NCBI GenBank assembly: GCA_026982355.1
Contig: JALSHG010000008.1
Location: forward strand, 1-32,329
DNA length: 32,329 nt
Source: Thermodesulfovibrio sp.
GTDB taxonomy: Bacteria > Nitrospirota > Thermodesulfovibrionia > UBA6902
Reading direction: 5' to 3'
Shown: piece after piece, positions 3,272 through 31,965 of the stretch
Numbering within the stretch: position 1 is the stretch's first letter
How the letters are laid out: each line of letters begins with the position of its first letter
Notes under the pieces: model-generated
Database searches by the model: none
What the model was told of the DNA's origin: nothing
Seen by the model: the letters and a program-made list of their open reading frames with translations, nothing else
Program-made: the position numbers and the translations under genes

Positions 3272-3318
3272 GGTTTTACGGCGGACTACTCTGCCCGTTC
3301 ATGCAACATTAAGGTTAA
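3272..3318 (-). repeat. Element E1, half copy (A arm)
   Basis: Only the inner-stem half and the A end (ATGCAACATTAAGGTTAA on the plus strand) remain; the B half is missing. The terminal TTA at 3315-3317 is the rodA stop codon on the minus strand. Orientation is along rodA-to-mlaE transcription. Confidence 0.8.
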
Positions 3319-4439
3319 TAATAGAGCGCAAACCTGCGCATCCTTACATTCTCGATGATGCTGAGCGCCATGAAATTTGAAAGCAGCGCCGTCCCGCCGT
3401 AACTCATCAGGGGCAACGGAACCCCCACAACAGGCATCATGCCGAGTGTCATGCCGATGTTGATGAAAAAATAAAATGAGAACATATAAGTTACGCCAAG
3501 CACGAGAAAACAGCCCTCGGTGTCCCGCGCCTTCTTTGCAGTGTCAAAGCCCCTCCATATAATGAAGAAATACAGCATGAACAGGACGGCGCTGCCCAGG
3601 AAGCCCCTTTCCTCGGCAAAGATCGAAAAGATAAAATCAGTATGATTCTCCGGAAGAAACCTGTAGGGGCCCTGGGTGCCTTTCATATATCCCTTGCCCA
3701 GGAATCCCCCGGAGCCTATGGACACCTTTGACTGGGTGATATGGTAGCCTATGCCCCGGGGGTCGGCCTGCGGGTCTATGAATGCTATTATTCTCTGTTT
3801 CTGGTATTCCTTCAACCCATTCCATATGATGTTGCCTGCAAAGGGCAGTGACACAACCATTGCGATCACCATTATCAGTATTATCTTTTTCCTGATCCCC
3901 GCGGTCAGGACCATCGCCGTGAATATGAACAGCAGTATCACGGTTGTCCCGAGGTCGGGCTGTTTAAGGATGAGAACCGCGGGGATTACAAAAAACGCCG
4001 CGGTAATCTTCACCAGCTCACTCATTCCGAGCATCGTTGCCTGCCCGGCGCCGGACAGGTAACGCGACAGGGCGAGGATAAAGAAAATCTTGAAAAACTC
4101 CGCGGGCTGAAAGGACAGGAAACCGAGGTTTATCCACCGCTGTGCACCCATGCCCTTTTTCCCGGCAACAAGCACAATGACGAGAAGGAGAATACCGGAT
4201 ATGAATACAGGATATGCAAACCTGATAAACCACTTGTAGTCAATGCTCACGACAACAAAAAACACGAACAGGCTCAAAATTATCCAGTAAAACTGTCTCA
4301 GGTAAAAAGACTCCTGCTCGGCATCCAGCACAGGCCTTGTTGCGCTGTATATCGTCATCACCCCTATCAGTGACACGATAATGGGCACTATCAGTATGCT
4401 CCAGTCGAAGTTATTCAGCAGCCGCCGGTCTATCATCAA
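3315..4439 (-). CDS. rodA: RodA, SEDS peptidoglycan polymerase
   Basis: SEDS-family glycosyltransferase that polymerises lipid II during cell elongation, partnered with the class B PBP2 encoded just upstream. It is 374 residues with about ten membrane helices. Visible signatures are QPAEFFKI (111-118), QPDLGTT (160-166), SKVSIGSGG (238-246) and PENHTDFIFSIFAEERGF (263-280). In the last, Asp268 corresponds to the essential Asp of E. coli RodA. It starts at the first of two adjacent ATGs, with a GGGAGAGG ribosome site upstream. The stop codon lies in the A end of element E1. It is 24 bp downstream of mrdA, in the same operon. Confidence 0.96.
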   Translation of the reverse strand: MMIDRRLLNNFDWSILIVPIIVSLIGVMTIYSATRPVLDAEQESFYLRQFYWIILSLFVFFVVVSIDYKWFIRFAYPVFISGILLLVIVLVAGKKGMGAQRWINLGFLSFQPAEFFKIFFILALSRYLSGAGQATMLGMSELVKITAAFFVIPAVLILKQPDLGTTVILLFIFTAMVLTAGIRKKIILIMVIAMVVSLPFAGNIIWNGLKEYQKQRIIAFIDPQADPRGIGYHITQSKVSIGSGGFLGKGYMKGTQGPYRFLPENHTDFIFSIFAEERGFLGSAVLFMLYFFIIWRGFDTAKKARDTEGCFLVLGVTYMFSFYFFINIGMTLGMMPVVGVPLPLMSYGGTALLSNFMALSIIENVRMRRFALYY

Positions 4440-9087: not shown

Positions 9088-9184
9088 TTATCCCTGAATG
9101 TTGCATAAACAGGCAGGGAAGTCCGCCGCAAAACCTCCGGCTTGCCCTGTCGGCTGCGGGTATTTTCATGCCGCTGCACGGTTG
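9088..9184 (+). repeat. Element E2, diverged full copy
   Basis: The A end is TTATCCCTGAATGTTGCATA. The inner stem pairs GGCAGGGAAGTCCG with its diverged partner, and the B end reads CATGCCGCTGCACGGTTG. It lies just after the -10 of the plus-strand promoter. A further 7-bp stem (GGCAACG-CC-CGTTGCC, 9210-9225) follows it. Confidence 0.75.
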
Positions 9185-10375: not shown

Positions 10376-10432
10376 TTAACCTTAATGTTGCATAAGCGGG
10401 CAGGCGATGTTTTTATGCAGCATTAAGGTTAA
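10376..10432. repeat. Element E4, symmetric A-A palindrome
   Basis: A 57-bp copy with two A ends: TTAACCTTAATGTTGCATAA at left and the inverse of TTAACCTTAATGCTGCATAA at right, matching 19 of 20. The GC-rich inner stem is almost gone. It lies between two convergent genes, so an A end faces each gene 3' end. Confidence 0.88.
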
Positions 10433-11602: not shown

Positions 11603-12844
11603 TTAAGGGCACGGAGATGCCGCCCGGGTGCTGCCTGCAGAGTCGACACTGCCGAGATTGGAATTGCAGATATCCTCTCCCGAGAAACTGCATGTGCCCG
11701 ATATCACGGAAGGCTTACTGTTGTCCCACCGGTTGCTGCGCGCATTGATATTGCCCGCCGTGGTATTCAACAAGTCGACGCTGATGTTGCAGCTTAGCGT
11801 ATTGTTGTTTATCACGGGCGCACCGTTGTTCAGGACATATATGCCGTACTGATTCCCGGTTACTGTATTGCCTGTCACGGACGGGGTGCCGCTGTTCAGC
11901 ACGTATATGCCGTATGTGTTTCCCGTGATCGTATTGCCTGTGATGGAGGGGCTGCCGCTGCTGACGGTTATTCCCCTGCCCCCGACCTCTCCCTGCTGGA
12001 AGTTCCTGATGGTCGAGTTGCTCACCGTGGAATCAGCCGACAGCGATATTCCTCCGGTGCCGTAGCCAGCGCTCTCTATCAGGCAGTCGTTGACCGTGAT
12101 TGCCGCTCCGTTGTCATATATTGCAGCAGTGGCGGTGCCGACACTGAGCATGCATCCCTCAACAGAGGCGCCTGCCGCTCCCACTATCGTGTTCGTAAGC
12201 CCTCCGCTGATTACCGTGGAGTAATCATCCCCGCGGCATTTGAGCGATGTGCCCTGTTTCAGGGTCAGGGGGAATGTCTCCCCTGCAGAGCTGTCATAGG
12301 TCCCCGCGTCTATGCATATCTCCTCATTGCCCTCTGTCTGCTTAAGGGCATAGGTAATGGTCCTGCACGGGGTGTCGGGATTGGAACAATCCGTATCATC
12401 CGCCCCTGCATTCACATCCACGTAGAGGCGGCAGGTGGTTGTTGCTGAGAGGTTGATCGTGATTGTGAGGGGCTTTCCGTCAAGGTCAACCCACGTCCCC
12501 CCCCTGTAAAGCACGGTGCCTGCTGCTGTCACGGCCTCCAGCACTATATGCCTGTCAGGCCCGTTCAGTATATCGAGTGTCACGGTTATTGAGCTCTCCC
12601 CCGCAATCTGTACAATCTTCTCCGCAGTAGCCATGTCATCGGCTGAAACCGTTATCCTGATACGGGCAACGGCTGGCGGTATGGCGGATGTTGTGCTCAC
12701 TGCGCCTGTGGCGACTGCAGGGCCTGTCTTTCCGAGGGTTATCGTCACGGCGGTTGTGCCGGACGTACCGCCTGACGGGCCGCCACCGCAGCCGGCTGTC
12801 ACTAAAAATATTGCAAGAGCAGGTATCATCAATATCTTTCTCAT
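11603..12844 (-). CDS. Lipoprotein with right-handed parallel beta-helix repeats
   Basis: The start MRKILMIPALAIFLVTAGC is supported by an AGAGGG ribosome site six bases upstream. The longer frame to 12955 only translates element E5. The lipobox is LVTAGC (Cys at about 19). A Ser/Gly/Thr-rich linker and a beta-sandwich-like region precede a DUF1565-like segment (LYVDVNAGADDTDCSNPDTPCRTI) and PbH1 repeats, seen as NTITGNTYGIYVLNSG and NTVTGNQYGIYVLNNG. Such folds bind or cleave polysaccharide or act as surface adhesins; no catalytic residues can be assigned. At 413 residues it is probably an outer-membrane lipoprotein. The upstream gene is CsgG-like and the downstream gene is a beta-barrel. 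Confidence 0.8.
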   Translation of the reverse strand: MRKILMIPALAIFLVTAGCGGGPSGGTSGTTAVTITLGKTGPAVATGAVSTTSAIPPAVARIRITVSADDMATAEKIVQIAGESSITVTLDILNGPDRHIVLEAVTAAGTVLYRGGTWVDLDGKPLTITINLSATTTCRLYVDVNAGADDTDCSNPDTPCRTITYALKQTEGNEEICIDAGTYDSSAGETFPLTLKQGTSLKCRGDDYSTVISGGLTNTIVGAAGASVEGCMLSVGTATAAIYDNGAAITVNDCLIESAGYGTGGISLSADSTVSNSTIRNFQQGEVGGRGITVSSGSPSITGNTITGNTYGIYVLNSGTPSVTGNTVTGNQYGIYVLNNGAPVINNNTLSCNISVDLLNTTAGNINARSNRWDNSKPSVISGTCSFSGEDICNSNLGSVDSAGSTRAASPCP

Positions 12845-12866
12845 AAAATCCCTCTTGTGAAACAGG

Positions 12867-12964
12867 TCAACCTTACAGTTGCATAAGAACAACCGCCTGG
12901 GGGCAGGGGAGTCGGCAGATTTTACGGCGGACTCTCCTGCCGGCTTATGCAACATTAAGGTTCA
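12867..12964 (-). repeat. Element E5, full copy
   Basis: The B end TCAACCTTACAGTTGCATAA lies 22 bp upstream of the lipoprotein start, and the A end (CTTATGCAACATTAAGG on plus) lies 6 bp from the stop of the upstream CsgG-like gene. The central stem pairs GGCAGGGGAGTC with GACTCTCCTGCC (minus strand), with one mismatch. Confidence 0.9.
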
Positions 12965-12970
12965 TTCTGC

Positions 12971-13921
12971 TTACTGCTCCGGAAAGGTAATATCGATTCC
13001 CACCGGAACCGGCGTATCCTCAGGGCCGCCCGCCCCCTTGACCGGAGACTCCGGTGTCAACCGGTCCGTGAGGGAAGTGCTGTCCCTCAGCGACTGCAGG
13101 AGCCTGCTGCTCCTCTTTGCGGCGGCAACGAGGCCGAGCGTCTTCAGTTCCCTCAGCGCGTCCCCGGCCATGCAGATATCCAGGTCGTCCTTCAGAGCGT
13201 TTTCATACAGCCGGGCCGCCTCTTCATAGTCCCCGCGGTCGCTGGCGTCGATACCCCTGAAAAAAGCAAGAAGCGCCGTACTGCTCGTTGAGCAGGGCTT
13301 TTTCAGCGCCGCCCTCCGTCCGGGGGTAAGCTCAATCTTCAGGAGTTCAACGATCCTGAAGAGGATGTCTTTTTCCATCCTGAACAGTTCATCGAGGCTG
13401 CCGCCGGCTGCGGCCCCGCCGAGCATCTCCGCCGCCGGCACATCTATAAGGTTTGACTCGATCCCGAGAGGCCCCCCTTTCTCCTTTTCGAGGATGTCGC
13501 CGCCCACCAGCCACCTGGCGCCCAGCAGCCTCCCCACGCGCGGCGCGGTCTCAAGATCGACCAGTCCCGAGACGGCAAGGCCCGTCTCATCGGCCAGGGC
13601 CTGAATCCTCGCCCTTTCAACCACCTGTATGCCCTCAATGGTGGAGAGATCGGTTATGAGCATGAGGGCCATGCCCTTTTGCACGGGGTCCAGTTCCGGC
13701 CGTCCGGTTTTATTGGTGAAATACAGCACGGCCGCCGTGTTGCGCCCCTGAAGCGCCTGGAGCGCCTTTTCTTCTTTCACCGCTTCCCTGGCCCACTGTC
13801 TCAGTTCCTTTGTAATCACCTGGCCTCCCGAGGCGCGGGCTGAAAAAGATACGGAAAGTAAAAAGACGAATACAAAGAGACTGCTGAGACAGTATTTTTT
13901 CATTTCAAGCACGTGAAGCAT
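12971..13921 (-). CDS. Exported CsgG/FlgO-like protein with C-terminal TPR-like segment
   Basis: A signal peptide (about 7-30, ending SFSARA) is followed by an alpha/beta domain (about 60-150) with AAVLYFTNKTG, VVERARIQALADETGLAVSG and RLGR/GARWLVGGDIL-type blocks shared by CsgG, FlgO and LpoB-type proteins. Residues 205-260 (ALLAFFRGIDASDRGDYEEAARLYENAL) look like one TPR. The start MLHVLEMKKY is favoured because AGGGGA lies seven bases before this ATG; the second Met (residue 7) has no site. Two related domains occur at 24030-24539 and 24536-26476. It is first in the operon with the lipoprotein and beta-barrel; the role is unknown. Confidence 0.72.
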   Translation of the reverse strand: MLHVLEMKKYCLSSLFVFVFLLSVSFSARASGGQVITKELRQWAREAVKEEKALQALQGRNTAAVLYFTNKTGRPELDPVQKGMALMLITDLSTIEGIQVVERARIQALADETGLAVSGLVDLETAPRVGRLLGARWLVGGDILEKEKGGPLGIESNLIDVPAAEMLGGAAAGGSLDELFRMEKDILFRIVELLKIELTPGRRAALKKPCSTSSTALLAFFRGIDASDRGDYEEAARLYENALKDDLDICMAGDALRELKTLGLVAAAKRSSRLLQSLRDSTSLTDRLTPESPVKGAGGPEDTPVPVGIDITFPEQ

Positions 13922-20290: not shown

Positions 20291-20899
20291 ATGCAGATAC
20301 TGTCTTTTGAAAAAAACACTTCTGAACAGATCAGGTCCGAAGCGCTGAAGGTGCTTGAAAAAGGCGGCATTGTGGCGTATGCCACGGAGAGCTTTTACGC
20401 CCTCGGCGTGCCGGCAACAGATGAAGAGGCGGTTAAGCGGCTCTTCGAACTCAAGAAAAGACCCCCGGAAAAGCCGCTGCCCGTAATCATCGGCGATGTG
20501 GCCATGCTTAAATCCATAGTAAAAGACATTCCGCGCAGTGCGCGGGGATTGATGGAGAAATACTGGCCCGGCCCCCTGACGATCGTATTTCATGCCGCGG
20601 ACAATATCCCGGCACTGCTTACCGGCGGCACGGGCAGGGTGGCGGCAAGGATCCCCGGCGAAAGCACAGCGCTTTTTCTGGCCGGGGAACTCAGACTGCC
20701 CCTGACAGCCACGAGCGCCAATCCCTCATCGCAGCCGCCTGCCGAAACCCCGGGACAGGTCATGGATTATTTCGGGGATAAAGCGGGCCTGATTATCGAC
20801 ACGGGGAGATCACCGGGCGGCATGCCGTCCACGATCATAGACGTCACCGTTACGCCGCCGCGGATTTTAAGGGCGGGAAGCGTCCGCCCGGATTATTAA
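20291..20899 (+). CDS. tsaC: TsaC/YrdC threonylcarbamoyl-AMP synthase
   Basis: Makes threonylcarbamoyl-AMP from threonine, bicarbonate and ATP for tRNA t6A37. The YrdC fold shows GGIVAYATESFYALG, KKRPPEKPLPVIIGD, KYWPGPLTIVF, ARIPGES and the TATSANPSSQPP nucleotide-binding stretch. 202 residues, with no Sua5 C-terminal domain. I start at MQILSFEKN; the frame is open to 20171, but that 40-residue extension lacks YrdC features and overlaps the promoter. No strong ribosome site is seen. The TAA stop (20897-20899) is the first part of element E8. Confidence 0.92.
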   Translation: MQILSFEKNTSEQIRSEALKVLEKGGIVAYATESFYALGVPATDEEAVKRLFELKKRPPEKPLPVIIGDVAMLKSIVKDIPRSARGLMEKYWPGPLTIVFHAADNIPALLTGGTGRVAARIPGESTALFLAGELRLPLTATSANPSSQPPAETPGQVMDYFGDKAGLIIDTGRSPGGMPSTIIDVTVTPPRILRAGSVRPDY

Positions 20900-20991
20900 C
20901 CTTAATGTTGCACAAGCCGGCAGGGGAGCCCGCCGTAAAACCTCCGTACCCCCCTGCCCTGGGGCGGTGTTTTATGCCGCTGTAAGGTTGA
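20896..20991 (+). repeat. Element E8, full copy
   Basis: Its A end TTAACCTTAATGTTGCACAA includes the tsaC stop. The stem GGCAGGGGAGCCCGCCG has a diverged partner ending CCCCCCTGCC, then GGGGCGGTGTTTTATGCC and the B end GCTGTAAGGTTGA. The TAAGGT of the B end sits 8 bases before the next ATG, where a Shine-Dalgarno site should be. Confidence 0.92.
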
Positions 20992-20995
20992 TACC

Positions 20996-23854
20996 ATGAA
21001 AAAGGCGTTGCTCATTTTACTGCTTGCCGGTGTTGTCTTTGTTGTCTCGCTTTTTCTCTTCATGAAAAGCCGCGCATTTCTGAACCTTGCCGGAGATATC
21101 GCCGGCAGGCGCACGGGCGGAACCGTGGAGATAGGTTCATTGTCTCTTGAGGGCGTGCACGGGATTGTCATGAGGGACGTGACAATAAGCGTCGGCGCCA
21201 ACGGGGATTTCAACCTCAGGCTGCCATACATTGAAGTCGGTTTCAGTCCCCTTGGCCTTCTCCGAAAGAGGCTCGGTGATATCACGGTAAAAGGTCCTGT
21301 GCTGTCCTTCACTGCCGGGGCCCGGGACAAACTGCCTGTTGCCGGAGCCCGCGGCACGGAGGCGACCGTGCCTTTTACATTCAGGAAGCTGTCTGTAACC
21401 GGCGCGGAGATACTGCTCCGGCCCGATGAGCTGACGGAGATGAAAGGCCTGCTGGATATCGATATGTACACATCGAGGCAGGACGACGCCACTGCGGACA
21501 GGATCAACTGGCGGACGGCGGCGTCCGTCCGCAGGCTCTCGTTTCATTCGGGGGACCTGAGCATCAATTTCAGAGACAGGCTTCTTAAACTGAATTCCGG
21601 CGGCGCCTATGACTTCAGGGCCGGCCGCATGGCCGTAGAACTGCTTGATCTGCAGCTTGAGGACACGGGAGAATTGACGCTCAGCGGTGTCCTGGAAAAT
21701 GTATTTTCCGCCGCTCCGGGGATTGATATGAAAGTGAAAGCCGCTGGGATTTCGTTGAACGGGCTGAGACGGCTTGTCTCCGGCCCTGCGGTTGAATGGC
21801 TTGATGAGACGGAGACCGATGGTTATCTTGAGGCGGACATTGCCGTAGCAGGCAATATCGAATCACCTGCACTAAACGGACTTGTTTCCGTGCATGGCGG
21901 AAGCCTCGAGACGGGAGATATCGGGCTTGCATCATTTGACATGAGGATCCCGTTTGCGTACAAAGACTTGTTGATCCGGTCCGATGCCTTTCATATCACG
22001 GCTGAAAGGGCCGCCTTTCCCGGCAAAGGCGGGACCCCGTACACCTTGAAGGGTGTATCAATAACAGGCGTGCTGGAGGGCGATCCGGCCGGCCGGTTGT
22101 TCCGGCTTGAACCGGTCACGCTTGAGGCCGAAGGGATAAGAGGCATAAAAGGGAATATGCTGTTGAACCTCCATAAGCCCGCTGTGATTCACGCGTCTTT
22201 TGATTACACGGATGATAATATCCGGGGCCTGGTGCATAAGTTCAGTCCGGCTCCGGGATTCAACGTGAGGGGGAGGGTCTCCGTAAAGACCACTGTGACT
22301 GTGACGATACCCGGGGAGACCGCTCCGCGGGCGGCCGGCTCGGTTTCCCTGAGTCTCCGCGATGCCGGGTTTTCGTCGGCTGATGAGAGCATGGTCGCCG
22401 AAGGCGTCTCAATGAATGCATCCGCAGGCTTCCGGTTTCAGCTTCCGCCGGAACGGATAGACGTTGCGGTTTCCTCGGAGGCCGGGGGCTTTGAAATGCT
22501 GGCCGGCAGGTTTTACGGTGACTTTTCCGATAAAAAGGTGCGTCTTTCGGCAAAGCTCGGATATGCACCGGACACCGACACGCTGAAAATATCCCGCGCG
22601 GAATTAAGCCTCACAGGCGCGGGCAGCGTCCTTGCCGCAGGGAAGATATCCGGCATCACGACCTCTCCTGCCTTTGATGCCGATGTCCGGCTTGCAGACA
22701 TATCCATTAAGGATGTGTACGATTTCTTTATCCGCGAAACCTTTCAGGAGCAGATGCCGGCCCTTTCACGGATCACGGTCAACGGCACAGCCTCCGCAGA
22801 CATGCATCTCAGCGGCCGGGTCAACGGCTTTGCCGCACGCGGGGAAGTCGCCATTGATGACATGAATATCCATGACAGCGGGGCCGGTGTCCGTTTAACG
22901 GGCGTGAATCTGCACCTGCCGGTGGACATATCCCACGCCGGGGCTGCTTCCCCCGCCGGCGGGGCGGAAGATTCCGGATCCCTCGTAATTGATGGCCTTT
23001 CGTGGGCAGGGCTGCGACTCGGAAACCTCCGCGCCTTCCCCGCGGTGCGGCGGAACGCCCTTGTGTTCAAAGACGATATAAGGCTTCCCGTGTTCGGCGG
23101 AAGCATAACGCTCAGGAATATCGCCTGGAGGAATATCTTAAGCCCTGAAAGGGAACTGAGCCTTTCAGCCGATATCAGGGACATCGATCTCCGCAGGGCG
23201 GGAGCCGTCTTCGGCGCGCCGGAATTTGAGGGAACCATGTCCGGCTCGATTCCAATGGTGAGTTTCAAGGGAAACAGGCTGCTCACAGAGGGAGAGATCG
23301 TCATTGATGTGTTCAACGGAAGGATAAAGGCGACCGGCCTGTCCGTGGATAATGTCTTCAGTCCCGTAACCTCCCTCGGGGTCAGCCTTGAGCTGGATGA
23401 GATCGATCTCGAAAAACTGACCGGCACCCTTGATTTCGGCCATGTCTCGGGCATCCTCCGTGGTTATATAAGGGACCTGGTGATCGTCAACGGGCAGGCA
23501 GAGAGTTTCACGGCATCGATAGAGACCGTAAAGAGAAAGGGGGTGAGCCGGAAGATCAACGTGGAGGCCCTCAGGAAAATATCCATTCTCGGGACAGGCT
23601 CATCGTCTTCTATCCTGGACAGGGGGATATACCGGTTATTCAAGGAATACAGGTATGAAAAGCTCGGATTCAGGGCATCCCTGAAAAATGACAGGCTCCG
23701 TCTCCTCGGGATTGAAAACAGGGGCAATACCGGATACCTTGTAAAGGGCGGGCTCTTTCCTCCCAAGGTGGATGTGATCAGCTACAATCAGGATATATCG
23801 TTCAAGGAGATGGTCGGCAGGCTGAAACGGGCGATGAGTGCGCAGATGTTTTAA
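20996..23854 (+). CDS. AsmA-like/TamB-superfamily envelope protein
   Basis: 952 residues: an N-terminal signal anchor (about 4-23) followed almost wholly by repeating beta-strand segments of the AsmA/YdbH/TamB type (e.g. TGGTVEIGSLSLEGVHGIVM, FSPLGLLRKRLGDITVKGP). The C-terminal region (about 770-950: GHVSGILRGYIRDLVIVNG, YEKLGFRASLKNDRLRLLG) resembles the AsmA-like C-terminal domain. Such proteins form grooves or bridges for phospholipid movement across the periplasm. That role is by family analogy and complements the Mla genes in the same window. The only ribosome-binding match, AAGG eight bases upstream, comes from element E8. Confidence 0.78.
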   Translation: MKKALLILLLAGVVFVVSLFLFMKSRAFLNLAGDIAGRRTGGTVEIGSLSLEGVHGIVMRDVTISVGANGDFNLRLPYIEVGFSPLGLLRKRLGDITVKGPVLSFTAGARDKLPVAGARGTEATVPFTFRKLSVTGAEILLRPDELTEMKGLLDIDMYTSRQDDATADRINWRTAASVRRLSFHSGDLSINFRDRLLKLNSGGAYDFRAGRMAVELLDLQLEDTGELTLSGVLENVFSAAPGIDMKVKAAGISLNGLRRLVSGPAVEWLDETETDGYLEADIAVAGNIESPALNGLVSVHGGSLETGDIGLASFDMRIPFAYKDLLIRSDAFHITAERAAFPGKGGTPYTLKGVSITGVLEGDPAGRLFRLEPVTLEAEGIRGIKGNMLLNLHKPAVIHASFDYTDDNIRGLVHKFSPAPGFNVRGRVSVKTTVTVTIPGETAPRAAGSVSLSLRDAGFSSADESMVAEGVSMNASAGFRFQLPPERIDVAVSSEAGGFEMLAGRFYGDFSDKKVRLSAKLGYAPDTDTLKISRAELSLTGAGSVLAAGKISGITTSPAFDADVRLADISIKDVYDFFIRETFQEQMPALSRITVNGTASADMHLSGRVNGFAARGEVAIDDMNIHDSGAGVRLTGVNLHLPVDISHAGAASPAGGAEDSGSLVIDGLSWAGLRLGNLRAFPAVRRNALVFKDDIRLPVFGGSITLRNIAWRNILSPERELSLSADIRDIDLRRAGAVFGAPEFEGTMSGSIPMVSFKGNRLLTEGEIVIDVFNGRIKATGLSVDNVFSPVTSLGVSLELDEIDLEKLTGTLDFGHVSGILRGYIRDLVIVNGQAESFTASIETVKRKGVSRKINVEALRKISILGTGSSSSILDRGIYRLFKEYRYEKLGFRASLKNDRLRLLGIENRGNTGYLVKGGLFPPKVDVISYNQDISFKEMVGRLKRAMSAQMF

Positions 23855-23907: not shown

Positions 23908-24007
23908 CAACCCCCGTATTAAAGCCGGCAGGGGAGCGCGGCGTAGAGCCTGCCGCGCACACTCCCCTGCCCACAGGCGGTATTTTTACGCCACTGTAAA
24001 AGGTTGA
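23908..24007 (+). repeat. Element E9, copy with degraded A end
   Basis: The A end is barely recognisable before AAGCCGGCAGGGGAG. The stem is present with a diverged loop, then CCACAGGCGGTATTTTTACG and the B end CCACTGTAAAAGGTTGA. It lies between convergent genes and is oriented with the plus-strand asmA-like gene. The remainder of 23855-24029 holds nothing else. Confidence 0.82.
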
Positions 24008-24029: not shown

Positions 24030-24539
24030 TTAATCCTTTAACAGCTCCTCCGCAGCATCCCGCGCGATTTCAAGCCATGCCGGCAGGTCCTCTGCCGCCG
24101 CGGTCTTATGAACCGCCTTTTTTATCCTGCCCGTCTCCACATCCACAAGCCTCAGGTCAAGCCGCATCCGGCCGCCTATGACCTGATAGCCTCCGAATAC
24201 CATCAGGCGCGCCCCGGATATCCTGCCGAGCCTGAGACGCGTGCCCTCATCAGCAAGCGATGCGGAGCCGAGACGGAGTTCCTCGAGGGCAAGCAGCAGC
24301 CGCTCTCTCTCAACAACCGTGTAGCCGGCCTTCTCCTGGATCGCCTTTATAATCCCGGCTGAAAGAAGCTCTCCAAGGTCCGGACGGCCGGAGGCCCGGG
24401 GGGTCAGATTATCAATGTCCCACACTGCGACGGCGACTTTTCCCCGGCCCGGGACCGGACCGGAGGCGCAGGAGGCCATCATGACAATAACGGCAAGTAA
24501 AAGTATATTGTGGTACGGTCTGAACAAATTACAAATCAC
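24030..24539 (-). CDS. CsgG/LpoB-like lipoprotein
   Basis: A 169-residue lipoprotein. The start is GTG, overlapping the stop of the upstream gene by 4 bp (GTGA). The signal ends in lipobox VMMASC (Cys24). The domain (about 33-165) has VAVAVWDIDNLTP, VVERERLLLALEELRLGSAS, RLGRISGARLMVFGG and RLDLRLVDVETG, the CsgG/LpoB-like pattern seen in outer-membrane lipoproteins that assemble secretion channels or activate penicillin-binding proteins. It closely resembles the CsgG part of its upstream neighbour, so it probably arose by duplication and may form mixed complexes with it. Confidence 0.75.
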   Translation of the reverse strand: MICNLFRPYHNILLLAVIVMMASCASGPVPGRGKVAVAVWDIDNLTPRASGRPDLGELLSAGIIKAIQEKAGYTVVERERLLLALEELRLGSASLADEGTRLRLGRISGARLMVFGGYQVIGGRMRLDLRLVDVETGRIKKAVHKTAAAEDLPAWLEIARDAAEELLKD

Positions 24540-26476
24540 AGGGCCGCTTCCTCTATTTTCTCCTGAACCTTGTCGTCAGCCCTGACCGGCCTTTCACTGC
24601 TTATAACGCGGACAAAGCACAGGTCGGGCTCAACGTCCACCACTTCAAGCAGGGCAACTGGCCTGGGTGCGCTCCGGAGCATTCTGCCTTTATACTTTAC
24701 CGGCTCCTGTTCTTCGAGGACATTGAATTTTGTCCCGGGCACAACGCCCTGCCCTGAGCCCAGGTTAACTATGAAACGGCCACTGCCGGCGTCCCTGACG
24801 ATGTAGCCGCGCAGGGGGTATTTCGATATGACGGTCCTGAGTATCTCGCGGTTGATGCGGAACAGCTCCTTTTCCAGGGAGGCCCCCGTATCTATCCGCC
24901 TCGTGATAACCTGCGGGATCGCAGATGTCTCGGTGTCTATAAGCCTGAGGTTGAGCAGCGTGGTCTGCGGCAGATAAAATATCGAGCCTGTCCCGATAAG
25001 CCTGGCGGCCAGTATCCTGCCGAGCCTCAGCGCCGTGTCGGGGTCGGCCAGATCGGAGGAGCCGAGATTAAGCTCATCGAGAAGGCGGTCCATAACAACG
25101 CGTTCAACCACCCTCACCCTGCCGGAGGCATTAAGGTAATCCGCAAGCTGTGTCATGAGCACGGTGGAAAACCCGTCTCTTTCAGCCAGCCCCCCCGCCT
25201 CCCTGAAGTCCACAAAAGAAATGACCATGGGAGGGGATGTCCATCCGTCCCCGCTCCCGGCCACTGCCTTTTTGCGGTTGCGGAACCTCTCCGCCAGGTC
25301 GCTGACCAGTTTGTCGATCCGCTTTCTGCGTTCAGCATCCTTCTGAAGGCTCAGCATTTCGGCGGCCTTTTTTGCCAGCGCAGCGGCAAAGGTGTCTTTC
25401 CCGTCAAGGGCCAGGGCCTTCCGGTAGGTTTCGAGGGCCTTGTCCCACCTGCCTTCTTTTGCATATGTCAGGCCCTTGTTCGTCGTGCCTTCGATATAAT
25501 ACGGGTCAATGCTCACCGCGCGGTCGTACAGCTCGCGGGCCTTCAGGTAGTCGCCGGAGTTTGCATATATCCGGCCGAGCTGGTTATACCTTACGGCGTC
25601 ATGGTAGGGGGCCGCCGACTTTTTCCGCACGGCCTGCCGGTATTCCTCCTCCGCCTCCTTCTTTTTGTTCCTGGCATAGAGTATGTCCCCCTTTATAACA
25701 TGCGGGAATGCCCTCTCCGGGGCCTTTTGTTCCACTTCCTCAATCAGCCGGAGCGCCTTTTCCGACTCCTGCTTTCTGGCATACACCGCGGCCAGGCCCT
25801 CTTTGCCGGTGATTTCCCCATCGCCCCCTGCCGTGGCGAGCGCTTTGAAGACCCTCTCAGCCTCCCGGAGATTATTCTCCTTCAGGGCTGCATACCCCTT
25901 GACGGCCTTTGCCCCTGTATTGCCGGGATTCCTTTTGATAATCTCTTCACTGATGGCCTTTGCGACCGCTGTGTTTTTCTGCTGCAGTTCCCTTTCGGCC
26001 ACCCTGAGGAGCATCATCTCGGCGGCCTTTCCGCCTCCTTCGAAATGGTCAAGGATTTCAAGCCCCGGGCCGATGACATATACCACTGGCAGGACCACCC
26101 GGGCATTGTAACGGCCGCTCACATCCGAATCATCAAGAAGCACGGGAAAGGCTATTCCCGTTTTTTTCACAAAGTCCGCCACCCTATCCCGCGGTGAACG
26201 TGTAACCGCCCATACGGTCAGACCGGCATCCACGTATTTTTTTGCCAGTTGGTCGAGGTTCAGCAGGCCTTCCTGGCTCGGCGCCGAGTCCACGTCGAAG
26301 AAATACAGGATGAGCATGCGATTCTGTTTCATGCCGGAGAGGTCGTATTTTCCCCCGCGGATATCTTTAAGGGAAAAGACCCGCGCCTCCTCCTTTGCGT
26401 AAGAGACGGCGCTTAAAAGCATAAGCCCTGTGACTGCGATCAGCAGAACAACATGTCTTGCGGCCATTGTCTTCAT
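24536..26476 (-). CDS. Exported redoxin-like/TPR/CsgG-like fusion protein
   Basis: 646 residues. A signal peptide (1-27, VSYA) is followed by a thioredoxin/AhpC-TSA-like domain (about 30-150) in which the usual CxxC is replaced (FFDVDSAPSQEG), so it cannot do thiol chemistry. Then come TPR repeats (about 155-365), a CsgG-like domain (about 415-530, VVERVVMDRLLDELNLGSS and RLGRILAARLIGTG) and a C-terminal beta domain (about 555-640) like the tail of FlgT-type proteins. AAGGAG lies nine bases before the ATG; an overlapping two-codon frame (ATG AAA TGA) precedes it. It is likely a periplasmic scaffold or sensor; coupled to the CsgG-like lipoprotein. Confidence 0.75.
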   Translation of the reverse strand: MKTMAARHVVLLIAVTGLMLLSAVSYAKEEARVFSLKDIRGGKYDLSGMKQNRMLILYFFDVDSAPSQEGLLNLDQLAKKYVDAGLTVWAVTRSPRDRVADFVKKTGIAFPVLLDDSDVSGRYNARVVLPVVYVIGPGLEILDHFEGGGKAAEMMLLRVAERELQQKNTAVAKAISEEIIKRNPGNTGAKAVKGYAALKENNLREAERVFKALATAGGDGEITGKEGLAAVYARKQESEKALRLIEEVEQKAPERAFPHVIKGDILYARNKKKEAEEEYRQAVRKKSAAPYHDAVRYNQLGRIYANSGDYLKARELYDRAVSIDPYYIEGTTNKGLTYAKEGRWDKALETYRKALALDGKDTFAAALAKKAAEMLSLQKDAERRKRIDKLVSDLAERFRNRKKAVAGSGDGWTSPPMVISFVDFREAGGLAERDGFSTVLMTQLADYLNASGRVRVVERVVMDRLLDELNLGSSDLADPDTALRLGRILAARLIGTGSIFYLPQTTLLNLRLIDTETSAIPQVITRRIDTGASLEKELFRINREILRTVISKYPLRGYIVRDAGSGRFIVNLGSGQGVVPGTKFNVLEEQEPVKYKGRMLRSAPRPVALLEVVDVEPDLCFVRVISSERPVRADDKVQEKIEEAAL

Positions 26477-26522
26477 TTCATGGTTCTCCTTTTCTGAAAT
26501 TTTTTAGTCTTCCCGTATGAAT

Positions 26523-26590
26523 TTCACTTTACAGCGGCATAAAAATACCGGCGGCGGGGCAGATTCCTGTGCCCGTTTATGCAACATTAA
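26523..26590 (-). repeat. Element E10, shortened copy, tandem with E11
   Basis: B end TTCACTTTACAGCGGCATAA, shortened stem, then the A end TTTATGCAACATTAA, where the final TTAA is also the first TTAA of E11. Together E10 and E11 fill the gap upstream of the redoxin-TPR-CsgG gene. Confidence 0.85.
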
Positions 26591-26682
26591 CCTTACAGTG
26601 GCATAAAAGTGCCGCCCGCGGGCAGGGAGTCCGGAGGTTTTACGCCGGACTCCCCTGCCGGCTTGTGCAACATTAAGGTTAA
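26587..26682 (-). repeat. Element E11, full near-consensus copy
   Basis: B end TTAACCTTACAGTGGCATAA; stem GGCAGGGAGTCCGG pairing with CCGGACTCCCCTGCC around a GTTTTACG-type loop; A end TTGTGCAACATTAAGGTTAA. The last TTA (26679-26681) is the kinase stop codon. A second AAGGTT follows immediately, so the end is duplicated. Confidence 0.93.
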
Positions 26683-27866
26683 GGTTGACTCGGTATGAGC
26701 CGGACACTCAGGGGAGTCTCCCCCTCGTCCTGCAACTGCACCTGTGCCTCCCACTCATAGTAATCCGTCAGGCTCAGCCGCACATCGTGTTTGCCGCGCA
26801 GAAGCTCCAGCCTCAGGGGGGTCTCCCCCCTGAACATCCCGTCCACAAAGACCCGGGCACCTGCCGGCGCGCTGTCTATCTTGAGAAAGGCCTTCGCGGC
26901 CTCTTCCGCGGCCGGCGGTGAATCCGTGCCGCTCTTTACTGATATGAAATAGTACGAAACCGCTCCCGCAATCACGAATATCAGCGCCGCGGCAATGGAA
27001 ACGACAATATTTTTCCGTGTCTTTCCACCGGCCTGTGCGGCTGCAGCCGCCTCTTCCTTTTTGCCGGAGCAGGCCTTCAAAGCCGCGGACAACTCCCTCC
27101 CGGAACTGTAACGCTCATCCGGATTTTTCCGCAGGCACCTCCGGATAACCCCGGACAATTCCTGCGGGACGGCCGGATTAATCGCTGTAACGGGAGGCGG
27201 CTCCTCCTGCGTGATTGCATTAAACACGGCAGCGAGGCTGTCGCCCCTGAAGGGCCTGGCGCCTGTGCACAATTCATACAATACAATCCCCAGCGAGAAA
27301 ATATCGGAGCGGCCGTCAACCGGCCGGCTCATCACCTGCTCCGGGGACATGTACGCGGGCGTGCCCAGTATCTCCCCGGCCTGTGTCTGCACTGCAGCGG
27401 AAGGGTCTTCAACGTGCGCGATCCCGAAATCCGTTATCTTAAGCCTTCCGTCTGTGCGGATGAGGATGTTGCCGGGTTTTATATCCCTGTGGACAATGCC
27501 TTTCTGATGGGCGTAATCGAGGGTTTCAGCCACCACGGCGCATGTTTCAATGATTTCAGCGGTTGTTGCCGTGCCCCTCCGCACAACTTCGTTCAGGGAT
27601 TCTCCCTCAATGAATTCCATTGCAATGTAGACGGTTCCCTCGTGTTCGTCCACATTATAGACACGCACTATGTTCGGGTGGTCAAGGCGGCCGAGCGCCC
27701 TGGCCTCGGCCAGGAACCTCTTCACAAAGGCGTCGCTCACGAGCCTGTCCCGGCGCAGGACCTTTAATGCCACGGTTAAATCGAGATTGGGGTCATGGGC
27801 CTCGTAAACCACGCCCATCGAGCCCCTCCCGATTTCCCTTTTCACCTCGTAACGGCCGTAATTCAC
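26679..27866 (-). CDS. Membrane Ser/Thr protein kinase with PEGA domain
   Basis: Hanks-type kinase of 395 residues. Gly-loop GRGSMGVVY (13-21), catalytic Lys35 (VALKVL), HRDIKPGN (126-133, Asp128), DFG (146-148) and the GTPAYMSPEQ activation segment are all intact, so it should be active. One membrane helix (about 286-308) leads to an extracytoplasmic PEGA domain (about 327-392, DSAPAGARVFVDG...GETPLRLELLRGKH), which may sense envelope components. The ATG overlaps the protease stop by 4 bp. The TAA stop is supplied by E11. Likely opposed by the PP2C gene and read by the FHA protein nearby. Confidence 0.93.
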   Translation of the reverse strand: MNYGRYEVKREIGRGSMGVVYEAHDPNLDLTVALKVLRRDRLVSDAFVKRFLAEARALGRLDHPNIVRVYNVDEHEGTVYIAMEFIEGESLNEVVRRGTATTAEIIETCAVVAETLDYAHQKGIVHRDIKPGNILIRTDGRLKITDFGIAHVEDPSAAVQTQAGEILGTPAYMSPEQVMSRPVDGRSDIFSLGIVLYELCTGARPFRGDSLAAVFNAITQEEPPPVTAINPAVPQELSGVIRRCLRKNPDERYSSGRELSAALKACSGKKEEAAAAAQAGGKTRKNIVVSIAAALIFVIAGAVSYYFISVKSGTDSPPAAEEAAKAFLKIDSAPAGARVFVDGMFRGETPLRLELLRGKHDVRLSLTDYYEWEAQVQLQDEGETPLSVRLIPSQP

Positions 27867-28819
27867 TGTAAATCCTTTAAAAATCCTATCAGCGTCTCCA
27901 TGGTGATAAAGAACCCCCTTGACTCGGTACCCCTGTACCGGCCCTTGACGATCCCGACGAGGTTGCCCTGTGCATCAAAGACCGGGCTTCCGCTGCCCCC
28001 GGGCAGGGTCTCCATGTCCACCTGCCACAGGGGATGATTGTTCACCCGCCGCAGCGGGCCGCTGACAGTGCCCGGCACTATCCTTCCCCGGTGATTATAG
28101 GGGCAGCCTACGGAATACACCGTCTCCCCCTCGTTCAGGACATTACGCGCGCCGGCGAGGGAGATGGAGGAATCAAGCCTCGTGCCGGTGTCGATAAGGC
28201 TGAGGTCGCGTCCGGCATCCCTCTTCACAAGACGACCCTTCAGTTCCCTGCCGGTGTCAAGGACAACGACAACCTCCCGGACGCCGGCGAGGTCATGGGC
28301 GGTTGAGATAACCAGCCCTTCCTTCCCCACAATGAATCCTGAAAACTGTATGGCCCTGTTGTTTATCGCCGCGCGGATGCATACAACGTTTGCAGTGCGC
28401 GACATGACCACCTCCGGGATATCCCCCTCCCGCCCTTTTCCCGCCGGATAACGCCCCTTTACATAGTTGTCGATAACATCCCGCAGGTCCATGTTCTTAT
28501 CCTCCACGGGCAGGCCGTTCAGGATGTGTTCAGCGTATAACGCGGATGCCAGGGGGGAGCGGGGATTTATGATTATCCGCCACCTTTCAGCCCCCCTGAC
28601 GGCATCGAGCCTCACACCGCCTGCCTCTGAAGCGGTCTGCCTGACCGTGAAGCCGGAGCCGGCAAGCCAGCGTGCAAGGAGGAGACTGGTCTCCGCAACG
28701 GGCAGGGGGGAGATCAGCGGCGCCGCCTGCACGCCGGCGGAAACGGGCCGGGATGCCAGCAGGGCCAGAAAAAAAATCACGATCAGCAACCTGATGAATC
28801 CGCCGGTATCAATCCGCAT
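27863..28819 (-). CDS. Secreted trypsin-like serine protease
   Basis: From MRIDTGGFIR the protein has a signal peptide (1-28, RPVSA) and 318 residues. A domain of unknown fold (about 40-140) precedes a chymotrypsin/HtrA-like protease: His175 in STAHD, Asp205 in GRDLSLI, and Ser276 in GGSGSP. No PDZ domain follows. The start is uncertain (Met two codons earlier, or GTG at about 28849); the frame to 28993 only translates element E12. It overlaps the kinase start by 4 bp, so the two are translated together. A periplasmic protease coupled to a PEGA kinase suggests a proteolytic signal-sensing step, but that is inference. Confidence 0.8.
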   Translation of the reverse strand: MRIDTGGFIRLLIVIFFLALLASRPVSAGVQAAPLISPLPVAETSLLLARWLAGSGFTVRQTASEAGGVRLDAVRGAERWRIIINPRSPLASALYAEHILNGLPVEDKNMDLRDVIDNYVKGRYPAGKGREGDIPEVVMSRTANVVCIRAAINNRAIQFSGFIVGKEGLVISTAHDLAGVREVVVVLDTGRELKGRLVKRDAGRDLSLIDTGTRLDSSISLAGARNVLNEGETVYSVGCPYNHRGRIVPGTVSGPLRRVNNHPLWQVDMETLPGGSGSPVFDAQGNLVGIVKGRYRGTESRGFFITMETLIGFLKDLQ

Positions 28820-28878
28820 GCACATGGCAATTGCACAGGCATGCCTCACGCAGGGGCCGCGGCCTGATTTTGCGTCTA

Positions 28879-28984
28879 TATACCTTACGGCGGCATAAAA
28901 ACATCGCCCGCGGGCAGGGGAGTCCGAAGGTTTTACGCCGGACCCCACAGCCGGATTATGCAACATTAAGAACATTAAGGGATA
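28879..28984 (-). repeat. Element E12, full copy with duplicated A tip
   Basis: B end TATACCTTACGGCGGCATAA; stem GGCAGGGGAGTCCG with a diverged partner; A end TTATGCAACATTAAG, immediately repeated as AACATTAAGG. The TTA at 28975-28977 in the repeated tip is the PP2C stop codon. Confidence 0.88.
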
Positions 28985-29706
28985 ATCTCGCACAGTACCG
29001 CTGTAATATTATCATATCCACCGGCCGACAGCGCCAGGCTTATCAGCCTGTCCACTTTCCGCTGCAGACCTCCGGGAATGGAAAGGGCGTCCCTGATCGC
29101 GCCGTCTTCCACCATGTCCGTAAGGCCGTCCGAACACAGCAGGAAAATATCGCCGGGCATGGTCTTCCCCCTGATAAGGTCGACGGCCAGTTCCTCCCTG
29201 GTGCCCACCGCCCTTGAAAGTACATGCCGGAGGGAATGCGTCCTGGCCTCAGCCGGTGTTATGAGCCCCTGGTCGACCTGCTCCTGGACGAGCGAGTGAT
29301 CCAGGGTGATCTGCCTGAGTTCGCCGGCCCTGAAAAGGTAAGTCCTGCTGTCCCCCACATGGCCGAGCACATAACCGCCGCTGAAGAAGGCCGCCACCTC
29401 CCCGGTACAGCCCATGCCCCGCTGTTGAGGATTCTCTGCCGCGGCGCTGACAATCCTCTCATTGGACAGCCGGAAGGCATCCCGGACCAGTTGCAGGTAT
29501 TCCTCTTCAGAGACCGGCCGGGCATCTGAAAAAACATCCGTCACGGTTTCTATGAAAATCCGGCTTGCCACTTCACCGGCGGCCTGCCCGCCCATTCCGT
29601 CCGCCACCGAGGCATAACCGCGGTCAGGGTCAACGACAAAGGCGTCTTCGTTGTTGGAGCGCCTGAGTCCTGTGTCCGACTTGCCAAAAGAGTTTATTTC
29701 AGACAT
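28975..29706 (-). CDS. PP2C-family protein phosphatase
   Basis: Metal-dependent Ser/Thr phosphatase of the Stp/PppA type, 243 residues, cytoplasmic. The metal-binding motifs are intact: SDTGLRRSNNEDA (Asp21), VADGMGGQAAGE (Asp36), VGDSRTYL, LCSDGLTDMV and GGYDNITAVL. It is a classic partner of Hanks-type kinases and lies upstream of the protease-kinase pair, separated by E12. The gene is divergent from the FHA protein. The stop lies inside E12. Confidence 0.95.
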   Translation of the reverse strand: MSEINSFGKSDTGLRRSNNEDAFVVDPDRGYASVADGMGGQAAGEVASRIFIETVTDVFSDARPVSEEEYLQLVRDAFRLSNERIVSAAAENPQQRGMGCTGEVAAFFSGGYVLGHVGDSRTYLFRAGELRQITLDHSLVQEQVDQGLITPAEARTHSLRHVLSRAVGTREELAVDLIRGKTMPGDIFLLCSDGLTDMVEDGAIRDALSIPGGLQRKVDRLISLALSAGGYDNITAVLCEIIP

Positions 29707-29755
29707 AATTTAATATACACGAACAGACAAAGATTGGAAACAACTTTTTCCGGGG

Positions 29756-29772
29756 CCGTATGAAAATTACGG
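29756..29772. other. Inverted repeat in the PP2C-FHA divergent region
   Basis: CCGTA-TGAAAAT-TACGG makes a 5-bp stem 50 bp upstream of the PP2C start. It could be an operator half-site pair or chance; no clear promoter boxes adjoin it. Confidence 0.25.
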
Positions 29773-29807
29773 TGAATGTTTCCCTTTACCGCTTAATCTT
29801 CTGACTG

Positions 29808-29906
29808 TAAACCTTAATGTTGCGCAAGCCGGCACGGGGGGTCCGCCGTAACACATCCGGCGCCCCCTGCCCGCGGGGCGGTGTCTTTCTGCCGCTGTAA
29901 GGTAAA
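29808..29906 (+). repeat. Element E13, full copy
   Basis: A end TAAACCTTAATGTTGCGCAA; stem GGCACGGGGGGTCCGCCG with CGGCGCCCCCTGCC; GGGGCGGTGTCTTTCTGCC; B end GCTGTAAGGTAA. It ends 17 bp before the FHA start. Confidence 0.9.
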
Positions 29907-29923
29907 GAACAATTGAGGAAAAT

Positions 29924-30892
29924 GTGAAATCCGTACCCGTCATAGTCGTACAGCTCGTCCACATACTGGGTCCCATGAAGGGGGAGATACAGGAATTCAC
30001 CCGAACGCCGATCCTCATAGGCCGCGACCCCTCGTGCAACCTGCGCTTTCCTCCCGGGTTGAACACCATTTCCAGGAAACATGCCCGGATCACAAGAGAA
30101 GGCAACCAGTTCCGCCTGATCGACCAGAGCGCCAACGGCACCTTTGTAAACGGAAAGAGGATCGGGGAGACCGTTCTCAGAAACGGCGATGTGCTGGAGT
30201 TTACCGAGGGCGGGCCGAAGGTGAGCTTCCTGTTTGAGATGAGGGAAGGGACGGTCGGGAATGAACCCCCCGGGCCTGCCGAGACGGAAGAATCAGCCGC
30301 ACCCGTGACACCTCGGGCACAGGAGCCGCCTGTGAAGGAGCAGAAGCGGCAGGAAATTCCTGCTGTGGCTGCTGCCGGGCAGGAGACCGTTCAGCCGGAG
30401 TCATCAGCGGTTAAACCGCCCCCTCAGCCGTCCGCTGAGAGGGTCAGTGCGCCGCTTATCATCCAGTACGGCCCCACCCTCCGTTCCTACAGGGAGCTTC
30501 CTGTAACTATCGGCAGGGACACAACCTGCGATTTTATTATCGATCATCCCATGATACACGACCGGCACGCCCGGATATTTTTCAGCCGGAACCAGTACTG
30601 GATAAAAGACCTCACCGGTAAGCAGACCCTGCAGATAAACGGCCGGCCGGTTGCGATACAGTCCCCCCTGAATGTCAATGATGAATTGTCCCTGAGCCAG
30701 GGGGGACCGGTCTTCCGCTTTCTCGGGGAGGGCCGTCTGGCCGAGATTGAAGAGGCCCCTGCCGTAGCCGGGGCTCAGCCTCCCCAGGAAGAAGAGACAA
30801 AAGAAGAAAAGCCGGACTCCCGCGGAATACCCGGATACAGCGCCCCGAAGAAAATCCTCTCCAGGTTGAAGAAATACTGGGAACACAGGTAG
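29924..30892 (+). CDS. Protein with two FHA domains
   Basis: 322 residues, no membrane segment. The first FHA domain (about 22-105) has the full phosphothreonine-binding set: GRD (Arg34), SRKH (50-53), and NGTFVNGK. The second (about 185-268) keeps GRD and a final NG but has His in place of the Ser of SxxH (IHDRH, 212-215), so its binding may be weak. A Pro/Glu-rich linker (about 110-180) separates them and a basic C-terminus follows. The start is GTG with GAGGA five bases upstream; ATG two bases earlier hits TGA at once. Likely reader of the neighbouring kinase. Confidence 0.9.
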   Translation: MKSVPVIVVQLVHILGPMKGEIQEFTRTPILIGRDPSCNLRFPPGLNTISRKHARITREGNQFRLIDQSANGTFVNGKRIGETVLRNGDVLEFTEGGPKVSFLFEMREGTVGNEPPGPAETEESAAPVTPRAQEPPVKEQKRQEIPAVAAAGQETVQPESSAVKPPPQPSAERVSAPLIIQYGPTLRSYRELPVTIGRDTTCDFIIDHPMIHDRHARIFFSRNQYWIKDLTGKQTLQINGRPVAIQSPLNVNDELSLSQGGPVFRFLGEGRLAEIEEAPAVAGAQPPQEEETKEEKPDSRGIPGYSAPKKILSRLKKYWEHR

Positions 30893-30901
30893 AAAACAGG
30901 G

Positions 30902-30956
30902 TAACCGCCGGACTCTCCTGCCCGCAGGCGGTGTTTTTATGCAACCGTAAGGTTAA
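30902..30956 (+). repeat. Element E14, half copy (B arm)
   Basis: Only the distal stem half and the B end remain: GCCGGACTCTCCTGCCCGCA, GGCGGTGTTTTTATGC, CGTAAGGTTAA. It starts 10 bp after the FHA stop, as a terminator would. Confidence 0.85.
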
Positions 30957-31006
30957 TATCACCTTTGCGGGATAGGCGGCGGATTATCCGGCCTGAAAGC
31001 AGCAGC

Positions 31007-31908: not shown

Positions 31909-31965
31909 TTTTCCGCCGGACTCCCCCGCCCGCAGGCGGTGTTTTTTATGCGCCTGTAAGCTGAG
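31909..31965 (+). repeat. Element E15, half copy (B arm)
   Basis: Distal stem CCGCCGGACTCCCCCGCCC, GCAGGCGGTGTTTTTTATGC, B end CCTGTAAGC. It lies in the 412-bp divergent gap between pyrE and the Fe-S protein gene, oriented towards the latter. The A half is missing. Confidence 0.8.

What the first reader, a model, noticed from the sequence alone, without database searches (positions are those of the whole stretch)
24030..30892. Candidate transmembrane phospho-signalling locus: kinase, phosphatase, FHA reader, protease and CsgG-like proteins
Six neighbouring genes encode a PEGA-domain Hanks kinase, a secreted trypsin-like protease translationally coupled to it, a PP2C phosphatase, a two-FHA protein, a redoxin-TPR-CsgG fusion and a CsgG-like lipoprotein. 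No type VI secretion genes are present, although kinase/phosphatase/FHA trios are best known there. The predicted layout puts the kinase sensor, protease and CsgG proteins outside and the phosphatase and FHA protein inside. Together they could sense envelope damage and signal by phosphothreonine. I know no described system with this exact set.
Basis: partly seen in the sequence, partly recalled or inferred. Interest (0 to 1): 0.72.

Follow-up and report, generated by a model that had tools for sequence, protein, structure and literature searches.

The report
T6SS phosphothreonine switch with envelope arm
Six neighbouring genes encode a membrane kinase, its phosphatase, a phospho-reader and three envelope proteins; comparison across two phyla indicates that they are a detached control unit for the bacterium's type VI "molecular harpoon", with an input arm not described before.

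Summary
The six genes are real, at the stated coordinates, and form a conserved cassette: FHA-FHA (divergent) | PP2C, trypsin-like protease, kinase-TM-PEGA, degenerate thioredoxin-TPR-CsgG/FlgT-like protein, CsgG-like lipoprotein. The order recurs in Nitrospirota and Desulfobacterota/"Deltaproteobacteria" (47 loci). The same genome has a T6SS cluster on another contig, including TagF but no kinase, PP2C or FHA gene; the genome's only FHA protein and only PP2C are in this cassette. In an unselected sample of 297 Desulfobacterota-type genomes, 16 of 17 with the fusion protein carry a T6SS sheath gene, against 18 of 280 without it. In several relatives the cassette lies near T6SS genes. Best reading: a T6SS threonine-phosphorylation pathway (PpkA-PppA-Fha logic) with a new periplasmic/outer-membrane input arm. 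Some T6SS-less relatives keep kinase and envelope parts but replace the FHA reader with FHA-sigma54 proteins, so the envelope part may be a switchable sensor. The "redoxin" lacks its cysteines in all 42 relatives. What is sensed, and whether the protease cleaves anything, are unknown. New variant of a known kind.

The parts
24030..24539 (-). CsgG-like lipoprotein (169 aa); Ser-Cys lipobox at residues 23-24 invariant in 8 relatives; covers only the first half of the CsgG profile, so no pore hairpins
24536..26476 (-). Fusion protein (646 aa): signal peptide, ResA-like thioredoxin fold with SxPS instead of CxPC, TPR superhelix, CsgG/FlgT-like C-terminal region; marker gene of the cassette
26679..27866 (-). 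PknB-like Ser/Thr kinase (active-site HRDIKPGN, DFG and APE-region residues conserved), one transmembrane helix, periplasmic PEGA domain
27863..28993 (-). Exported trypsin-like (Trypsin_2) protease; triad H233, D263, S334 invariant in 32 relatives; likely true start near 28825 or 28819; 4-nt overlap with the kinase
28975..29706 (-). PP2C Ser/Thr phosphatase, Stp1 family; the only PP2C in the genome
29924..30892 (+). Two-FHA cytoplasmic reader with proline-rich linker; first FHA canonical, second degenerate; the only FHA protein in the genome
10438..11649 (-). Associated gene: predicted outer-membrane beta-barrel (no Pfam family); lies next to the cassette in 13 of 27 relatives with enough sequence
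11603..12955 (-). Associated gene: exported beta-helix (DUF1565/NosD-like) protein, next to the cassette in 4 of 27 relatives
12971..13921 (-). Associated gene: second CsgG-like periplasmic protein, next to the cassette in 12 of 27 relatives
28882..28970 (-). Copy of a dispersed ~100-nt palindromic repeat between PP2C and protease; breaks the PP2C-protease overlap seen in orthologues

Best explanation
The cassette is a threonine-phosphorylation pathway that controls the cell's type VI secretion system, encoded away from the T6SS cluster in this genome. Inferred mechanism: an envelope complex (outer-membrane CsgG-like lipoprotein, periplasmic thioredoxin-like/TPR/FlgT-like scaffold, trypsin-like protease, and probably the outer-membrane barrel and second CsgG protein) reports envelope state or a contact site to the periplasmic PEGA domain of the kinase. 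The kinase then phosphorylates threonines on itself, the FHA protein or a T6SS membrane component such as TssL. The first FHA domain binds that phosphothreonine, relieves TagF inhibition and licenses T6SS assembly at that place; PP2C resets the switch. Shown here: gene content, order, intact catalytic residues, topology signals, co-occurrence and linkage with T6SS, absence of any other FHA or PP2C gene in the genome. Inferred: the phosphorylation target, the direction of regulation, the sensed signal and the protease's role.
For: Own genome: T6SS cluster with TssK, L, M, TagF, ImpE, TssA, B, C, Hcp, TssE, F, G, ClpV on C105; whole-genome family searches find one FHA protein and one PP2C, both in the cassette; in G001, G018 and G030 too, FHA and PP2C hits lie only on the cassette contig. 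Co-occurrence: 16/17 fusion-positive vs 18/280 fusion-negative genomes carry VipB, Fisher p = 3e-16; 38/43 cassette genomes carry VipB; all 16 genomes with the two-FHA gene beside the cassette carry VipB. Five distant TPR-CsgG hits in the same sample have 0/5 VipB. Linkage: T6SS cluster and cassette contiguous in G065, within one 20-kb stretch in G329, sheath gene within about 17-33 kb in G079, G066, G270, G098 and G368. On the fusion-protein tree the T6SS subtype changes at least 8-10 times (rough subtype labels), so co-occurrence is not one inherited event. Literature: PpkA-PppA-Fha control T6SS, TagF binds Fha (PMC5995506), and the periplasmic input differs by species: TagQRST (PMC10482370), RtkS (PMC6082577), TssW (PMC12607579).
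Against: Cassette and T6SS are on different contigs in this genome. G013, G014 (single contig), G021 and G028 have the fusion but no VipB; G002 (88% complete, 410 contigs) has kinase, protease, PP2C and FHA but no VipB. Some Desulfobacterota loci (L141, L143, L147) have protease-fusion-CsgG without a kinase in place. In 5 of the 38 VipB-positive genomes only a divergent or partial sheath gene was seen. The co-occurrence test is not phylogeny-corrected. The FHA protein scores below the cut-off of the T6SS TagH model (72.5 vs 120.25 bits), and the kinase is nearer PknB than any named PpkA. TssJ and VgrG were not identified on C105. No experiment exists.
Confidence: 0.74

Rival explanations
1. 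A general envelope-stress phosphothreonine system independent of T6SS: the envelope complex reports damage to the kinase, and the FHA reader acts on cell-envelope synthesis or transcription.
For: Genus g13, including a genome in a single contig (G014), keeps kinase, fusion and CsgG lipoprotein (protease seen in G021 and G028) without VipB, with FHA-sigma54, FHA-HisKA and other PP2C genes beside them. Kinase-free protease-fusion-CsgG loci exist. The window also carries mreBCD, PBP2 and rodA.
Against: T6SS is rare in the sampled groups (34/297, 7/61) but present in 16/17 of the unselected fusion carriers. The two-FHA reader is absent beside the cassette in g13. The mre/pbp genes do not recur beside the cassette.
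Confidence: 0.17
2. The cassette is tied not to the canonical T6SS but to the divergent fused TssB-TssC-like protein, i.e. to a separate sheath-like assembly.
For: Among T6SS-positive genomes of the sample the fused TssBC type is found in 15/16 with the fusion protein and 7/18 without (p = 0.001); it is directly beside the FHA gene in L135, L138, L153, L160 and L175.
Against: The window's own genome and G001 have the cassette and a canonical TssC but no fused TssBC. TssBC lacks the sheath C-terminal domain.
Confidence: 0.05
3. An anti-phage defence locus built around a Hanks kinase.
For: The kinase matches PADLOC kinase models such as PD-T4-6.
Against: A generic Hanks kinase domain is expected to match these models; FHA, fusion and CsgG proteins match none, PP2C and protease only weakly; conserved order and periplasmic parts do not fit.
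Confidence: 0.02

Closest known systems
T6SS threonine phosphorylation pathway, PpkA-PppA-Fha with TagF (P. aeruginosa H1, S. marcescens, A. tumefaciens, A. citrulli)
   Same: Inner-membrane Ser/Thr kinase with a periplasmic domain, PP2C phosphatase, FHA reader, TagF in the T6SS cluster, exported partner proteins encoded beside the kinase, T6SS in the genome
   Different: Encoded as a stand-alone cassette outside the T6SS cluster here; PEGA periplasmic domain; two-FHA protein under the TagH model's cut-off; input arm of protease, degenerate thioredoxin-TPR-FlgT/CsgG protein and CsgG lipoprotein instead of TagQRST, RtkS or TssW
PknB-PstP-FhaA/FhaB locus of Actinobacteria (from own knowledge)
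   Same: PknB-like kinase, Stp1-type PP2C and FHA readers side by side; best PDB matches of the kinase are PknB/PknA
   Different: No PASTA domains; no conserved cell-division or wall genes beside it; exported protease and CsgG-like proteins present
FlgT / LpoB / CsgG-type outer-membrane-associated proteins
   Same: Fold or domain matches for the C-terminal part of the fusion and for the lipoprotein
   Different: No flagellar or curli genes linked; the lipoprotein covers only profile positions 7-97 of 210, so it is not a CsgG channel

Membership tests
T6SS threonine phosphorylation pathway | Transmembrane Hanks kinase with periplasmic C-terminal domain and intact active site | tested here: met
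T6SS threonine phosphorylation pathway | Cognate PP2C phosphatase encoded alongside | tested here: met
T6SS threonine phosphorylation pathway | FHA protein with canonical phosphothreonine-binding residues | tested here: met
   First FHA domain: GR, SRxH and NGTxxNG invariant or nearly so in 17 sequences
T6SS threonine phosphorylation pathway | FHA protein of the T6SS-associated TagH/Fha1 family by curated model | tested here: not met
   TIGR03354: 72.5 bits against a cut-off of 120.25
T6SS threonine phosphorylation pathway | T6SS present in the same genome | tested here: met
T6SS threonine phosphorylation pathway | Encoded inside or beside the T6SS cluster | tested here: inconclusive
   Not in the own genome (different contigs); yes in G065 and G329 and, within about 17-33 kb, in G079, G066, G270, G098, G368
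T6SS threonine phosphorylation pathway | Kinase phosphorylates Fha or TssL and controls Hcp secretion | not testable with these tools
   needs experiment
TagQRST input module | TagQ lipoprotein, TagR, TagS/TagT ABC transporter beside the kinase | tested here: not met
   No ABC transporter or TagR-type domain among the six genes; a lipoprotein is present but CsgG-like
CsgG secretion channel | Full CsgG domain including the transmembrane hairpins | tested here: not met
   Lipoprotein matches profile 7-97 of 210, fusion 35-99 of 210
Thiol-disulfide oxidoreductase (ResA/TlpA) | CxxC active site | tested here: not met
   S64 and S67 invariant in 42 of 42
PASTA kinase (PknB/StkP) | Extracellular PASTA repeats | tested here: not met
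   PEGA instead

The most novel reading that the evidence does not exclude
The protease / dead-thioredoxin-TPR-FlgT-like / CsgG-lipoprotein set with the barrel and second CsgG protein is a previously undescribed trans-envelope sensor or site marker with interchangeable outputs: it licenses T6SS assembly through the two-FHA reader where a T6SS is present, and drives transcription through FHA-sigma54 or FHA-histidine-kinase proteins where it is not.
Probability: 0.35. Interest if true: 0.76.

Novelty: new variant of a known kind. Interest (0 to 1): 0.62.

Why it matters
Known T6SS phosphorylation pathways differ mainly in how the kinase is told when and where to act; three periplasmic inputs are described in the papers read, all in Proteobacteria. 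This would be a further, unrelated input arm, conserved in Nitrospirota and Desulfobacterota, and it would show that T6SS control can be encoded away from the T6SS cluster, where cluster-based surveys miss it. It makes a concrete question testable: do a periplasmic protease and a non-catalytic thioredoxin fold set T6SS firing?

Tried and rejected
T6SS-independent signalling as the main reading: rejected as leading after the genome and co-occurrence searches. Thiol-redox sensing through a CxxC: rejected, SxxS in all 42 orthologues. CsgG secretion pore: rejected, only the first half of the domain is present. Anti-phage kinase: only generic kinase-model hits. Link to the mre/pbp genes of the window: not conserved beside the cassette in G001 or other relatives. 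PDB sequence search with the CsgG lipoprotein alignment found nothing. Paper searches for CsgG + FHA domain + threonine kinase + type VI and PEGA + FHA + type VI + kinase found nothing; a search for TssB-TssC fusions in Desulfo- taxa found nothing on point.
Full report
Observation. The six genes are present as described and their domains are confirmed. The order FHA (divergent) | PP2C - protease - kinase - fusion - CsgG lipoprotein recurs in relatives. Among loci with at least 5.5 kb upstream of the fusion, 25 of 31 have the kinase, 25 of 31 the protease, 16 of 31 the PP2C and 13 of 31 the two-FHA gene; among loci with at least 4 kb downstream, 20 of 27 have the CsgG lipoprotein. PP2C-protease and protease-kinase genes mostly overlap or are a few bases apart, as in one transcript. 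In the window a ~100-nt dispersed repeat lies between PP2C and protease, and the protease start is probably 28825 or 28819 rather than 28993.

Anatomy. Kinase: PknB-like domain with conserved active-site residues, one transmembrane helix, periplasmic PEGA. Phosphatase: Stp1-family PP2C with metal-site aspartates invariant. FHA protein: first domain canonical, second degenerate in most orthologues, proline-rich linker, basic C-terminus. Protease: H233/D263/S334 invariant in 32 sequences, plus an invariant cysteine pair. Fusion: a predicted structure of good quality (mean pLDDT 86.6) matches ResA (including Cys-to-Ala variants), TPR superhelices and FlgT; the two cysteine positions are serine in all 42 orthologues, so it should be a binding fold, not a redox enzyme. 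Lipoprotein: invariant Ser-Cys at the lipobox, half a CsgG domain. The window also carries, 10 kb away, homologues of genes that lie directly downstream of the cassette in relatives: a predicted outer-membrane barrel, a beta-helix protein and a second CsgG-like protein (13/27, 4/27 and 12/27 loci).

The type VI link. The own genome (2.62 Mb, 119 contigs) has a T6SS cluster on C105 with TssK, L, M, TagF, ImpE, TssA, B, C, Hcp, TssE, F, G and ClpV. No kinase, FHA or PP2C gene lies there; genome-wide there is one FHA protein and one PP2C, both in the cassette, and one other clear protein kinase, an AAA/GAF/histidine-kinase hybrid on C116. In G001, G018 and G030, relatives with T6SS, FHA and PP2C hits also lie only on the cassette contig. 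TagF is known to act by binding Fha (PMC5995506), so a cluster with TagF but no Fha suggests a partner elsewhere (inference).

Co-occurrence. Forty-three genomes carrying the fusion protein were searched: 38 have a VipB/TssC match, although in five of them (G063, G067, G070, G088, G092) only a divergent or partial one. To avoid selection bias, 297 genomes of the phylum of Desulfosarcina widdelii (at least 85% complete) were searched for VipB and for the fusion: 34 have VipB, 17 have a true fusion orthologue (E below 1e-140), 16 of these 17 have VipB (one of them, G304, only a divergent copy), against 18 of 280 others (Fisher p = 3e-16). The test is not corrected for phylogeny. However, on the fusion-protein tree the T6SS subtype label changes at least 8-10 times, about as often as for shuffled labels (subtype assigned roughly from the VipB match pattern), so one inherited pairing does not explain it.

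Linkage. In G065 the T6SS cluster (ClpV to TssK) is followed by four small genes and then protease-kinase-fusion-CsgG-barrel-CsgG2; in G329 ClpV, a TssB-TssC fusion, VgrG and the whole cassette lie within 20 kb; in G079, G066, G270, G098 and G368 the T6SS sheath gene is about 17-33 kb away.

Natural contrast. Genus g13 (G014, a single contig; G021; G028) keeps kinase, fusion and CsgG lipoprotein but lacks VipB; there the two-FHA gene and the PP2C are replaced by another PP2C and by FHA-sigma54, FHA-TPR and FHA-GAF-HisKA proteins. All 16 genomes with the two-FHA gene beside the cassette in the genome contigs set have VipB; an exception outside that set is G002 (88% complete, fragmented). This suggests that the reader protein sets the output.

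Comparison with the literature. In the papers read, PpkA phosphorylates Fha or TssL, PppA reverses it, TagF inhibits, and the periplasmic input varies: TagQRST senses membrane damage in P. aeruginosa (PMC10482370), RtkS binds and stabilises PpkA in S. marcescens (PMC6082577), TssW is an outer-membrane activator in A. citrulli (PMC12607579). No paper found in the held library joins T6SS, an FHA domain, a threonine kinase and CsgG, or PEGA, FHA and T6SS; the library lacks most subscription papers.

Verdict. The locus most likely works like the T6SS threonine phosphorylation pathway and meets most of its defining features; the curated TagH model is not met and biochemical criteria are untested, so it is filed as a new variant rather than as a plain member. 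The input arm and its possible output switching are the novel part. The sensed signal, the phosphorylation target and the protease's substrate are inference or unknown.

Noticed in passing
L135:4176-5741, L115:10048-11580, L226, L113, L114: A ~510-525 aa protein joins a VipA/TssB-like and a VipB/TssC-like part and lacks the sheath C-terminal domain; found beside the FHA gene, beside ClpV or beside the cassette PP2C, and commoner in T6SS genomes that have the fusion protein (15/16 vs 7/18). Role unknown.
   Followed up: partly
window 3272-3322, 9093-9184, 10376-10407, 12867-12965, 20891-20992, 23922-24007, 26586-26682, 28882-28970, 29810-29903, 30903-30957, 31913-31960: A dispersed palindromic repeat of about 100 nt, at least 11 full or partial copies in 32 kb, also on the T6SS contig and in a same-genus genome; MITE- or REP-like.
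   Followed up: partly
L034:998-7361, L035:13507-16908, L031:1058-2605: FHA-sigma54 activator, FHA-TPR and FHA-GAF-HisKA proteins encoded beside the cassette in relatives; the FHA-HisKA gene is present in G001 but no such FHA gene exists in the window's genome.
   Followed up: partly
G000:C116, L038:3-5573: 1856-aa hybrid of Ser/Thr kinase, AAA_16, GAF and histidine kinase, the genome's other clear protein kinase.
   Followed up: no
window 20996-23854: 952-aa AsmA/TamB/GspN-like protein with no Pfam match, flanked by repeat copies.
   Followed up: no
L115:11597-12067, L113, L114: A 156-aa GNAT-like acetyltransferase is encoded next to the fused TssBC in genus g6.
   Followed up: no
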